Positions 2,948-6,868 of a stretch of DNA of 64,000 bases are shown piece by piece. Below the pieces are notes generated by a model, which was given only the letters and a program-made list of their open reading frames with translations, had not been told where the DNA came from and ran no database searches. The stretch's first letter is position 1. Each line of letters starts with the position of its first letter. The translations under genes were made by a program, and so were the position numbers. Source of the DNA: Thermococcus pacificus (GTDB lineage: Archaea; Methanobacteriota_B; Thermococci; Thermococcales; Thermococcaceae); NCBI RefSeq assembly GCF_002214485.1, contig NZ_CP015102.1:868001-932000 (forward strand), given 5' to 3'.

Positions 2948-4822
2948 TCAGGATTTCTCAAGAGTGAAAGGACTTATGTAGTCGCCGTACTTCTCCCTGG
3001 CCTCAAGAAGGCGCTTCCTTTCTTCTTCGAGAACCCTGAAGAGCTCTTCGGGAACGTTATCGAGCTTCCTGTATATCTCCTCAATGCGGTCTATCTTTGC
3101 CAGAAGCTCCGGAACCCGTATTGTGAACTGCTTCTCGTAGGCATCTCTCGTGTATTCTTTGTTCAGAACCTCATCAAAGAGTCTTCTTAAATCCTCGTAC
3201 TTCGGTATGTAGCCGATTGGAGTCTCTATGGCCTCGACGTCGCCGTGAACGCGAAGCTCCATCCACTTGAGCCAGACTGCCTTGTCGAGCTTGTGGTTGA
3301 GCCAGTTGCCCTTTTCATCGCGGAGGAAGTAGTTGACGGCGAAGATTTTCGGCGATTTCCTGAGCTTTCTGCCGAACTCGAGGTAGTTCCTGAGGTAGTC
3401 GCCAAGGTGGACGCTCATGAAGTCGAGGATGGCCATTGGGTTGAAGGCCCTAACTCCTTCCTTTCCTAGGGTTGCCGCTGTCGTCTCGCTCTCAAGAGAG
3501 GCGCCCATGGTTATGACGCCGTGCTCCCAGTCGAAGGCTTCCCTCACCGGCGGCCAGGTGTCTGCGTCCCTTCCTCCGAATATCATTCCACCGACTTCAA
3601 CGCCGCACGGGTTCTCAAGGGCCTCCAAATCTGCGTTGGGGAAGTGCTCGAGCGAGACTGTGAAGCGCGCGTTCTTGTGGCTTGGAGGTATCTCGTTGCC
3701 TTCGGCGTCCTTCTTTCCGCGCCACCACTTTCCACTGTGGTTCTCTCCCTCATCGGGAATCTCAACACCCATGTCGTTCCAGTAGGGCTTTCCATCCTTC
3801 ACCAAAACGTTCGAGAAGATTATCTCGACCGGTGAGTGGAGAACCTGCCATATTATCGGGTCGTCCTCGGGGTTTACACCCTGGATGATGCCGAAAACAC
3901 CCTTCTCAACGTTCGCTCCCCTGGCAACTCCGTTGACCGGGAGGATAAAGCTCAGGTCGTCGCCGACTATGTTCTCCCAGCTTATCATGGCCGTTGATGT
4001 CTTGCCGCACATGCTCGGGTAAGCACCGGTGAAGTAGGTCTTCCTGCCGTGCGGGCCGTTCACGCGCATGAGGAACATGTGCTCACTGAGCCAGCCCTCC
4101 TCGACGGCCCTCTTGATGGTCAGCCTGAAGGCGAGCTTCTTGAGGCCTATAGTGTTCCCGCCGTACTGGGTGTTAACTGAGTAGACGGTCTCGTCCTCGA
4201 GGTCGATGTAAATCCTCCTCTTGTCGAGGTTCTTGCTCGTCTTCCTCTCGTCCAGCTCTCCAGTCGAGTGGACAAAGCGGAAGAACCTTGCGCTCCTTCC
4301 AAGCCTCTTAAACTCCTCGTAGCCTTTGCGGTAAAGGATGAACTCCGAGTGGGCAACGTAAGCGGAATCAGTGAGCTGGACGGCCGGAATCGTGAAGATT
4401 GAGTTTTTAGGTCCGAGGACGAAGAAGCAAATGAAGAGCTCCTTGCCCTTCATAACGCCCCTCATGAGCTCGCGTATCTCCTTCAGGCCTTCGTCCCTGT
4501 CCTTGGTGTTTATGTAGGGGAGCTTCTTCCCACCCGACAGGAGGATGGCGGTGTTGGCCTTGTCCCTCGCCTGGTCGTAGTAGTTGTCGTAGTGGACGGT
4601 ATGGTTCGGTGTTTCGAGCATCTTTTCTTCGCAGTAGTAGAGGGCCTTCCAGCGGACGTACTGCTCGTCCTCTTCGCTGTCTGTGCAGACGAAGACCTTA
4701 TCCGGCTCGAGCCACTCAATCCACTCCGCCAGAAAAGCGTGCAGCTCAGGGTTGTCTATCGCCTTTATCTTCTCGAACTGCTCTTTATCGAGGAGCTTTT
4801 CAAGCCTCTCAAGGGGTTCCAT
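2948..4822 (-). CDS. pck: Phosphoenolpyruvate carboxykinase (GTP)
   Basis: A 624-residue GTP-class PEP carboxykinase interconverting oxaloacetate and PEP with GTP/GDP, linking the C4 pool and gluconeogenesis. The catalytic nucleotide loop SMCGKTST, with the Cys typical of GTP-dependent enzymes, is at about residues 270-277, preceded by GPHGRKTYFTGAYP. Length matches GTP-type enzymes rather than the shorter ATP type. It lies 90 nt upstream of malP in the same direction but has its own terminator-like hairpin after it. It is divergent from the nucleotidyltransferase gene at 4965, with a shared 142-bp control region. The start ATG follows GGAGGCGATACC. Confidence 0.95.
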   Translation of the reverse strand: MEPLERLEKLLDKEQFEKIKAIDNPELHAFLAEWIEWLEPDKVFVCTDSEEDEQYVRWKALYYCEEKMLETPNHTVHYDNYYDQARDKANTAILLSGGKKLPYINTKDRDEGLKEIRELMRGVMKGKELFICFFVLGPKNSIFTIPAVQLTDSAYVAHSEFILYRKGYEEFKRLGRSARFFRFVHSTGELDERKTSKNLDKRRIYIDLEDETVYSVNTQYGGNTIGLKKLAFRLTIKRAVEEGWLSEHMFLMRVNGPHGRKTYFTGAYPSMCGKTSTAMISWENIVGDDLSFILPVNGVARGANVEKGVFGIIQGVNPEDDPIIWQVLHSPVEIIFSNVLVKDGKPYWNDMGVEIPDEGENHSGKWWRGKKDAEGNEIPPSHKNARFTVSLEHFPNADLEALENPCGVEVGGMIFGGRDADTWPPVREAFDWEHGVITMGASLESETTAATLGKEGVRAFNPMAILDFMSVHLGDYLRNYLEFGRKLRKSPKIFAVNYFLRDEKGNWLNHKLDKAVWLKWMELRVHGDVEAIETPIGYIPKYEDLRRLFDEVLNKEYTRDAYEKQFTIRVPELLAKIDRIEEIYRKLDNVPEELFRVLEEERKRLLEAREKYGDYISPFTLEKS

Positions 4823-4847: not shown

Positions 4848-4931
4848 GCGATGCCTTAAAATAGTTTGTCGAGTAACTAAGTACGTTGATGCATCTATGA
4901 GTTCAGTGGTGATGGCATCGCAAAATATATT
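4848..4931. promoter_or_regulatory. Divergent control region pck / nucleotidyltransferase
   Basis: Both promoters are visible: TTTTAA-type TATA for pck on the minus strand (about 4853-4862) and AAAATATATTA (4922-4932) on the plus strand. The octamer GGCATCGC follows the pck TATA on the minus strand (4848-4855) and precedes the other TATA on the plus strand (4914-4921). Between them lie the dyads GATGCATC (4888-4895) and GATGGCATC (4911-4919). The repeated GATG/CATC pattern suggests a shared operator. Confidence 0.45.
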
Positions 4932-4964
4932 AACTGGGAGTGATACATTGAGGTGGTGCGCACA

Positions 4965-6050
4965 ATGAAGGCGGTAGTGCTCGCAGGAGGCAGGGGGACG
5001 AGGCTTCTCCCGCTGACGGTATACCGGCCGAAGCCCATGATACCCTTCTTCAACAGGCCCCTAATGGAATATGCCCTGCTGAACCTCATCAACGCGGGCG
5101 TCGATGAGGTCTACGTCCTCGTCGGCTACCTGAAGGAGCGCATAATGGAATACTTCGGAGACGGAAGCAGATGGGGAATCGAGATTCACTACTCGAACAA
5201 GGATAACATAAAGCTCGGAACTGCCGGTGCCACCAAGAAGGTGGTCAAGCACATGGACGATACGTTCTTCGTTGTTTCCAGCGACGTTCTGACTAACCTC
5301 GACCTGAAGGCGCTCTACGACTATCACCGCTCGAAGAAGGCCCTTGCAACGATAGCACTCTCGCAGGTGGAAGACCCAACCCAGTACGGCATAGCGATAA
5401 TCGACAACGACGGCAGAATCCTGCGCTTCAAGGAGAAGCCAAAGCCCGAAGAAGCCTTCAGCAACCTCGTCAACGCTGGCATCTACGTCTTTGAGCCGGA
5501 GGCCTTTGACCTCGTTCCAAAGGCAAAGGAGTTCGACTTCTCCAAGGATCTTTTTCCGAGAATGCTGGAGAACGACTTAGCCCTCTACGGCTTCCCGTTC
5601 AGTGAGTACTGGAACGACGTGGGAAGGGCCTCGAGCTATCTCCAGGCGACTGAGGACGTTTTCCTCGGCCGATTAATCCTCCCAGGATTGAGAACCGAGA
5701 GCTTGAAGGGCAACCTCGAGTACGGCGGGGCGGTCGTTACCGGCAGGAGATGCATCCTGAGGCAGCCCGAGGTCAGAGGCTTTGCGGTTCTCGGCGACAA
5801 CGTTGAGATCGGCCAAAACGTTAAAATAGAGCGTTCGGTGATATTTTCAGGCGCTGTTATAGGGGACGGTGCCGAGATAAGGGAAGCGATAATCGGCGAA
5901 AACGTCCGGATTGGAAAGGGCGTTGTGATCCAGCCTGGAAGTGTCATAGGCGACAACACGCTCATCGAGGACTTCAGCAAGATCGGCTCCAACGTCAAGA
6001 TATGGGTGGAGTCGAGGATTGGAAAGGAGAGTATAGTACTGCCTGACTGA
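4965..6050 (+). CDS. Sugar-1-phosphate nucleotidyltransferase with left-handed beta-helix
   Basis: A 361-residue NDP-sugar pyrophosphorylase-like protein (COG1208 type). The N-terminal nucleotidyltransferase fold has the signature GGRGTRLLPLT (about 8-18), RPKPM, and SSDVLTNLD, where the Asp would bind metal. The C-terminal third (from about residue 255) is hexapeptide-repeat left-handed beta-helix (NVEIGQNVKIE, GAVIGDGAEIRE). The ATG at 4965 is chosen over the upstream in-frame GTG because GAGGTGGT lies just before it. It would join a sugar-1-phosphate to a nucleotide; base and sugar are not fixed by sequence. Its closest architecture is the N-terminal half of bacterial guanylyltransferase/phosphomannomutase-like fusion proteins, and the next gene matches the other half. 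Confidence 0.88.
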   Translation: MKAVVLAGGRGTRLLPLTVYRPKPMIPFFNRPLMEYALLNLINAGVDEVYVLVGYLKERIMEYFGDGSRWGIEIHYSNKDNIKLGTAGATKKVVKHMDDTFFVVSSDVLTNLDLKALYDYHRSKKALATIALSQVEDPTQYGIAIIDNDGRILRFKEKPKPEEAFSNLVNAGIYVFEPEAFDLVPKAKEFDFSKDLFPRMLENDLALYGFPFSEYWNDVGRASSYLQATEDVFLGRLILPGLRTESLKGNLEYGGAVVTGRRCILRQPEVRGFAVLGDNVEIGQNVKIERSVIFSGAVIGDGAEIREAIIGENVRIGKGVVIQPGSVIGDNTLIEDFSKIGSNVKIWVESRIGKESIVLPD

Positions 6051-6060
6051 GGTGGTGAAA

Positions 6061-6768
6061 ATGGAGGTATACCATTCCCCAAGGTTCAACCCGGAGGAGC
6101 TGGCCCTCCTTGGAAGGGCCATAGGGACCATATCTCACGGCACGATAATAGTCGGAAGGGACGGAAGGGCCATATCGAGGTACGGAAAGAGAGCTATGGT
6201 TGTGGGAATCGTCAGCACTGGTTCGACGATAATGGACGTCCGCCTCATCCCGCTCATAGCGCTCAAAGACTTCGCCCACCGGAAGGGCCTTCCGTTAGCG
6301 TACGTCTACTACCACAACGGCGTCCGCGTTTACGTCAGCGGCATCGACAGCGACGAGATAGGGGCAATACTAGAGAGCAGAAGCTTCATCGAGGCCCACC
6401 CGAACGACATAGGCGCGACCGTCTACTATCCCAACGCCCTCGACGACTTCCTGCACGAGGTCTTCAAGCACTATAACTTCCAAGTTGGGGGCAAGGTTCT
6501 AGTGGACGCTATGAACACCCCCGCTGTGCTCTTCTTCCCGCGCATGAGCGATCACTTCGGCTTCGAGGTCGAGCTGATCAACGACATGATGACCAGCTAC
6601 CTCCCACCCAAGCCGAAGGAGGTCTTCCTCCACAAGTTGAGCAAGGGAGACTACGACTTCGGCCTGCGCTTCAGGCCCGAAGGAGTGGTCGAGTTCTACA
6701 GGGAAGGTGAGGAACTCGAGTTTGGAAGCATGTGGAAGCTCCTTGATCACATGAAGAAGAACCTTTGA
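6061..6768 (+). CDS. Degenerate, truncated phosphohexomutase-like protein
   Basis: A 235-residue protein starting 10 nt after the nucleotidyltransferase stop (ATG after GAGGTGGTG), so certainly co-transcribed. Residues 28-60 (VGRDGR at 31-36) resemble domain 1 of alpha-D-phosphohexomutases, and residues 133-165 (KVLVDAMNTP) resemble domain 2. Where active enzymes have the phosphoserine loop TASHNP there is YVYYHNGVRV (about 81-90). Where the Mg2+ loop DGDADR should follow, FRPEG appears (about 204-208). The rest of domain 3 and all of domain 4 are absent. Catalysis therefore looks impossible; a structural or regulatory role with the nucleotidyltransferase is inferred. The gene ends in a T-rich stretch, not at an obvious truncation scar. 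Confidence 0.75.
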   Translation: MEVYHSPRFNPEELALLGRAIGTISHGTIIVGRDGRAISRYGKRAMVVGIVSTGSTIMDVRLIPLIALKDFAHRKGLPLAYVYYHNGVRVYVSGIDSDEIGAILESRSFIEAHPNDIGATVYYPNALDDFLHEVFKHYNFQVGGKVLVDAMNTPAVLFFPRMSDHFGFEVELINDMMTSYLPPKPKEVFLHKLSKGDYDFGLRFRPEGVVEFYREGEELEFGSMWKLLDHMKKNL

Positions 6769-6786
6769 TTTTTCGGTTATTTTTTA
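6769..6786 (+). terminator. T-rich terminator after the phosphohexomutase-like gene
   Basis: Immediately after the stop codon there are two T-runs (TTTTT and TTTTTT), as used by archaeal intrinsic termination. The next gene has its own TATA box (GCATTAAAAAGG, 6817-6828). Confidence 0.5.
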
Positions 6787-6868
6787 AAACTCTTTAAAAA
6801 ATCCTCACGGAAAAGCATTAAAAAGGTACTTCCCGACATCCCCTCCGTTCATTTTGGAGGTGACACCT

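What the first reader, a model, noticed from the sequence alone, without database searches (positions are those of the whole stretch)
4965..6768. Sugar nucleotidyltransferase partnered with a catalytically dead phosphohexomutase
Seen: the gene 10 nt after the nucleotidyltransferase keeps phosphohexomutase domains 1-2, but the phosphoserine loop TASHNP is YVYYHNG, the Mg2+ loop is FRPEG, and the C-terminal half is missing. Known: in several bacteria a single protein fuses an NTP-transferase/beta-helix to a phosphomutase-like domain, itself often non-catalytic. Inference: this is the same complex encoded as two genes, with the mutase kept as an allosteric or substrate-presenting subunit. A second, fully active phosphomutase exists at 53 kb, so catalysis here is not needed.
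Basis: partly seen in the sequence, partly recalled or inferred. Interest (0 to 1): 0.6.

Follow-up and report, generated by a model that had tools for sequence, protein, structure and literature searches.

The report
Orphaned half of a split enzyme
Next to an ordinary sugar-activating enzyme gene sits a half-length, catalytically dead sugar-phosphate mutase that every well-sequenced Thermococcales archaeon keeps intact, even though its presumed partner enzyme has been lost or broken about ten separate times, so the 'dead' protein probably does something important on its own or with another partner.

Summary
Gene 1 (4965-6050) encodes an intact sugar nucleotidyltransferase with a beta-helix. 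Gene 2 (6061-6768) encodes 235 aa covering phosphohexomutase domains I-II; the serine and metal loops are replaced and domains III-IV are absent. Gene 2 is no decaying remnant: it is in 93 of 94 Thermococcales genomes (74/74 good ones), single copy, never broken, median dN/dS 0.06-0.09, and no copy has live loops.

Bacteria encode both halves as one chain of about 830-860 aa. Such chains are the best plasmid matches of gene 1, their mutase halves are dead in 24/24, and they share with gene 2 an Arg in domain I (24/24) that 0/14 active mutases have. A domain I-II tree places gene 2 with them, so 'one fused complex encoded as two genes' is likely.

But gene 1 is dispensable. It is absent (23) or fragmentary (5) in 28 of 93 genomes, needing at least 10 changes on the tree, while gene 2 stays intact and constrained. 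No co-loss is seen, so serving gene 1 cannot be gene 2's only role. In 16 gene-1-less genomes gene 2 directly follows a site resembling the Thermococcales sugar-regulon motif. Its function remains unproven.

The parts
4965..6050 (+). Gene 1: sugar-1-phosphate nucleotidyltransferase with C-terminal left-handed beta-helix, 361 aa, signature motifs intact (GGRGTRLLPLT..KPM, FKEKP, YWNDVGR)
   Evidence: motifs conserved in the 63 complete copies
6061..6768 (+). Gene 2: pseudo-phosphohexomutase, domains I-II only, 235 aa
   Evidence: intact in 93 of 94 Thermococcales genomes
6154..6198 (+). GRDGRAISRYGKRAM (residues 32-46): domain I segment with the SRYGKR motif; Arg40 is shared with bacterial fused dead halves (24/24) and absent from the active mutases compared (0/14)
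6298..6327 (+). AYVYYHNGVR (residues 80-89): replaced catalytic serine loop (TASHNP in active enzymes)
6661..6687 (+). GLRFRPEGV (residues 201-209): replaced metal loop (DGDADR in active enzymes)
4929..4945 (+). ATTAACTGGGAGTGATA: weak TGM-like site (3 mismatches) 19 nt before gene 1; stronger versions (1-2 mismatches) stand directly before gene 2 in 16 genomes without gene 1
   Evidence: consensus from PMC4706686
6854..7492 (+). Thymidylate kinase gene (name from sequence and general knowledge), directly downstream of gene 2 on the same strand in 93 of 93 genomes; neighbour, link to gene 2 unknown
2948..4822 (-). Divergent gene sharing the upstream spacer, read as GTP-dependent PEP carboxykinase (name from general knowledge); marks the locus when gene 1 is gone

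Best explanation
The pair is the two-gene form of a bacterial fused protein in which an apparently active sugar nucleotidyltransferase with a beta-helix is joined to a mutase half that has lost its catalytic loops. In Thermococcales the halves are separate genes and the mutase half ends after domain II (shown by sequence; common origin likely, not proven). Gene 2 is a conserved protein without mutase motifs, not a decaying enzyme (shown). Gene 1 is expendable and has been lost about ten times while gene 2 stays under constraint (shown). Gene 2 must therefore act without gene 1. The mechanism I favour (inferred): its remodelled domain I-II surface, rich in invariant Arg and Tyr, binds a sugar phosphate or nucleotide sugar, and gene 2 regulates or scaffolds other sugar-phosphate enzymes, serving gene 1 as one client where gene 1 is present.
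For: Gene 2 in 93/94 genomes, 74/74 of high quality, no internal stops. Gene 1 intact in 65 of those 93 genomes, fragmentary in 5, absent in 23, with no full-length orthologue elsewhere in those 28 genomes; at least 10 changes on the tree, 7 forced by well supported branches. Broken copies carry deletions and frameshifts. dN/dS of gene 2 between close gene-1-less sister pairs 0.016-0.07; the 23 genomes without gene 1 vary at only 18 of the 105 positions fixed in gene-1-bearing genomes, mostly conservatively. Fused bacterial proteins are the top plasmid matches of gene 1 (35-38% identity over at least 96%) and occur in 19 of 198 genomes of one bacterial phylum; all 24 mutase halves examined are dead, and Arg40/Arg44 are shared by 24/24 and 21/24 against 0/14 and 1/14 active mutases. 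Tree: active mutases on one side at 95/98, gene 2 with the fused halves; gene 2 plus the window genome's own phosphopentomutase-like protein (L002) rejected, p-AU 0.018. TK1404, which I equate with gene 2, is reported without phosphoglucomutase or phosphomannomutase activity.
Against: Overall profile scores do not favour the fused halves: gene 2 scores 47-64 bits with an active-mutase profile and 27-40 with the fused-half profile. The gene 2 stem is very long, so long-branch effects may distort the tree, and the nucleotidyltransferase tree is undecided (p-AU 0.37). No ligand, partner or phenotype is known. AlphaFold models are fair to good for domain II but poor for domain I (mean pLDDT 56 and 54), so no binding pocket could be examined.
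Confidence: 0.5

Rival explanations
1. One reading: gene 2 is a dedicated allosteric or substrate-presenting subunit of gene 1, and the two always work as one complex.
For: Spacing of 10-14 nt where both are complete; fused counterpart in bacteria.
Against: Gene 1 absent or fragmentary in 28 of 93 genomes with gene 2 intact and constrained.
Confidence: 0.1
2. Gene 2 is tied to its other neighbour, thymidylate kinase, for example in nucleotide or dTDP-sugar supply.
For: Thymidylate kinase follows gene 2 on the same strand in 93 of 93 genomes, with gaps of 13-42 nt in genus g3 (G004-G012); the adjacency outlasts gene 1 and is kept where the carboxykinase neighbour is not found.
Against: Adjacency may be conserved for other reasons; in the window the gap is T-rich and may separate two transcripts; no functional link is known.
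Confidence: 0.15
3. Gene 2 has a new catalytic activity on a sugar phosphate, built on invariant Arg, Lys, Tyr and Asp residues of domains I-II.
For: 80 of 235 residues are invariant across 93 genomes, including polar ones not typical of mutases (RYGKR, Y-YY, DIGA-YYPNA, NDM, PPKP).
Against: The mutase catalytic loops are gone; TK1404 is reported to lack the two mutase activities tested; the related bacterial halves are also dead and are fused to an enzyme.
Confidence: 0.1
4. Gene 2 is an independently duplicated Thermococcales mutase that lost catalysis, unrelated to the bacterial fused halves; the shared residues are convergent. (This concerns origin and is compatible with several of the functions above.)
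For: Higher profile similarity to active mutases, best to the window genome's own phosphopentomutase-like protein.
Against: Tree and AU test; Arg40 24/24 against 0/14; fused proteins are the top plasmid matches of gene 1.
Confidence: 0.15

Closest known systems
Bacterial fused nucleotidyltransferase / beta-helix / mutase-like proteins (about 830-860 aa; e.g. Sulfuricurvum WP_013449919.1, Streptomyces WP_331730321.1)
   Same: Same order of modules, best plasmid matches of gene 1, dead mutase half, shared Arg40/Arg44 and a replaced metal loop
   Different: One chain with mutase domains III-IV still present in degenerate form; here two genes, no domains III-IV, and the nucleotidyltransferase is often lost
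Archaeal phosphohexomutases of COG1109 (TK1108 PGM/PMM, TK1777 phosphopentomutase)
   Same: Sequence homology over domains I-II
   Different: Catalytic loops and domains III-IV missing in gene 2
GMPPA/GMPPB (GDP-mannose pyrophosphorylase with its non-catalytic regulator)
   Same: Theme of a non-catalytic protein next to a sugar nucleotidyltransferase
   Different: GMPPA is a dead nucleotidyltransferase paralogue (PMC11228364); gene 2 is a dead mutase and persists without gene 1; regulation by gene 2 is not shown

Membership tests
Alpha-D-phosphohexomutase superfamily (active enzyme) | Sequence homology to domains I-II | tested here: met
Alpha-D-phosphohexomutase superfamily (active enzyme) | Phosphoserine loop (TASHNP type) | tested here: not met
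   0 of 93 copies
Alpha-D-phosphohexomutase superfamily (active enzyme) | Metal loop DGDxDR | tested here: not met
   0 of 93 copies
Alpha-D-phosphohexomutase superfamily (active enzyme) | Domains III-IV with sugar and phosphate loops | tested here: not met
   protein ends after domain II
Fused nucleotidyltransferase-pseudomutase proteins | Dead loops plus Arg40/Arg44 signature in the mutase half | tested here: met
Fused nucleotidyltransferase-pseudomutase proteins | Common descent of the mutase half | tested here: inconclusive
   tree and AU test in favour; profile scores not
Fused nucleotidyltransferase-pseudomutase proteins | Single chain with four mutase domains | tested here: not met
   two genes, domains I-II only
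Sugar-1-phosphate nucleotidyltransferase with LbH (gene 1) | NTP_transferase domain with signature motifs and hexapeptide repeats | tested here: met
Sugar-1-phosphate nucleotidyltransferase with LbH (gene 1) | Sugar and nucleotide specificity | not testable with these tools
   none of the NCBIfam models shown reaches its cut-off
GMPPA/GMPPB-type regulatory pair | Non-catalytic partner is a nucleotidyltransferase paralogue | tested here: not met
   gene 2 is mutase-related
GMPPA/GMPPB-type regulatory pair | Physical interaction and feedback by nucleotide sugar | not testable with these tools
   needs biochemistry

The most novel reading that the evidence does not exclude
The dead mutase half of a bacterial fused sugar-activating enzyme was split off in Thermococcales and became an independent core protein, a sugar-phosphate sensor that acts on central carbohydrate metabolism, is controlled by the sugar regulon in several lineages, and has outlived the enzyme it came with.
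Probability: 0.25. Interest if true: 0.7.

Novelty: new variant of a known kind. Interest (0 to 1): 0.5.

Why it matters
Pseudoenzymes are usually explained as helpers of an active partner. Here the active partner is lost repeatedly and the dead half never is, which reverses the expected dependence. It also draws attention to bacterial proteins annotated only as nucleotidyltransferases whose mutase half appears dead.

Tried and rejected
AlphaFold models of gene 2 predicted domain II fairly well but not domain I, so no pocket analysis; the Foldseek search returned phosphoglucomutases only weakly. Profile scores could not establish origin from fused halves and leaned to active mutases. The nucleotidyltransferase tree was undecided. 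Other families of the same class have no gene 2, no clear gene 1 orthologue (one partial 38% match) and no fused protein. The phosphopentomutase as obligate partner is unlikely, since G006 (P. horikoshii by length) shows only two full-length mutases besides gene 2. The 413-aa nucleotidyltransferase paralogue remains a possible partner; in G034 it is split between two frames. The only non-Thermococcales locus returned by the genome scan (L024) was a weak match and was not pursued beyond an ORF list. The 2004 paper that tested the COG1109 genes is not held. Literature searches for a described fusion or for this pair found nothing.

Full report
Observation. Gene 1 (4965-6050) and gene 2 (6061-6768) are as described, 10 nt apart. 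Gene 1 is an intact nucleotidyltransferase with a beta-helix; none of the NCBIfam models shown reaches its cut-off, so its sugar is unknown. Gene 2 is homologous to phosphohexomutases (PF02878 E 9.3e-6; TIGR03990 E 5e-15; PDB 9ix8 E 4.7e-11). The alignment shows both loops replaced and the protein ending at the end of domain II.

Distribution and constraint. Gene 2 is in 93 of 94 Thermococcales genomes; the one without it is 73% complete, and 74 of 74 good genomes have it. No copy has an internal stop; 80 of 235 residues are invariant, and median pairwise dN/dS is 0.06-0.09. No copy has an active serine or metal loop. Outside the order but within the phylum only ordinary full-length mutases match.

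Gene 1 is expendable. Of the 93 genomes, 65 have gene 1 (two of these copies are cut by contig ends), 5 have fragments and 23 have none next to gene 2; whole-genome searches found no full-length orthologue elsewhere in those 28 genomes. Of 74 high-quality genomes 19 lack an intact gene 1, eleven of them assemblies of one or two contigs. The broken copies look like real decay: a closed genome of the length I recall for T. onnurineus NA1 has a 335-nt deletion and three single-base frameshifts; another closed genome has three single-base frameshifts at 96% identity to its intact relative. On a tree of neighbouring genes and gene 2 at least 10 changes are needed. That tree includes gene 2 itself and used a quick search, so the exact number is approximate. 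Gene 2 shows no relaxation in these lineages: close sister pairs have dN/dS 0.016-0.07, although some more distant pairs reach 0.22, and few fixed positions have changed.

Relation to fused proteins. The best matches of gene 1 among plasmid records are 832-845 aa proteins from Sulfuricurvum, Nonomuraea and Streptomyces, 35-38% identical over at least 96%, against at most 33.5% for the next ones. Full-length fused proteins occur in 19 of 198 genomes of a bacterial phylum. In all 24 examined the mutase half lacks the serine and metal motifs. Gene 2 shares with them Arg40 (24/24; 0/14 in active mutases), Arg44 (21/24; 1/14) and a Gly at the metal loop (20/24; 2/14). In a tree of domains I-II active mutases form one side at 95/98, and gene 2 plus the window genome's own phosphopentomutase-like protein is rejected (p-AU 0.018). 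Profile scores lean to active mutases and the nucleotidyltransferase tree does not decide. I judge common origin likely, not proven.

Known biochemistry. G024 has the length I recall for T. kodakarensis KOD1 (2,088,737). It has four mutase-family genes whose order and positions fit TK1108, TK1404, TK1777 and TK2185, so gene 2 would be TK1404, in a genome without gene 1. PMC11940775 reports that among TK1108, TK1404 and TK2185 only TK1108 had phosphoglucomutase and phosphomannomutase activity. This identification rests on my memory of genome length and on gene order.

Regulation. Sixteen of the 23 genomes without gene 1 have a site with 1-2 mismatches to TATCAC-N5-GTGATA 14-20 nt before gene 2; background is about 0.1 per kb. 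These genomes fall in at least three places on the tree, but many are close relatives. This consensus is the sugar-regulon motif bound by TrmBL1/Tgr, and a position downstream of the TATA box goes with repression that inducing sugars relieve. The site might instead serve the divergent carboxykinase gene. It is a consensus match only.

Mechanism. Shown: conserved, without mutase motifs, retained without gene 1. Inferred: ligand binding and regulation of sugar-phosphate enzymes. The conserved thymidylate kinase adjacency (93/93) is an unexplained alternative lead.

Noticed in passing
window 6769-6854 and all 93 loci: Thymidylate kinase lies directly downstream of gene 2 on the same strand in every genome examined, more conserved than the gene 1-gene 2 pairing.
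   Followed up: partly
L071, L073, L074, L062 and others, 14-20 nt before gene 2: TGM-like sites (1-2 mismatches to TATCAC-N5-GTGATA) before gene 2 in 16 genomes lacking gene 1; weaker forms before gene 1 in the window and relatives.
   Followed up: partly
L156, L164-L178, L197-L200: Bacterial fused proteins (annotated, where annotation exists, only as nucleotidyltransferases) carry a mutase half without the catalytic serine and metal loops.
   Followed up: partly
L054 (G001): The space of gene 1 holds an unrelated minus-strand ORF; the flanking carboxykinase and thymidylate kinase are 92% and 89% identical to the window while gene 2 is 72%, suggesting recombination.
   Followed up: no
G034:C1:932145-933382: The 413-aa nucleotidyltransferase paralogue is split between two frames in this small (1.52 Mb) closed genome.
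   Followed up: no
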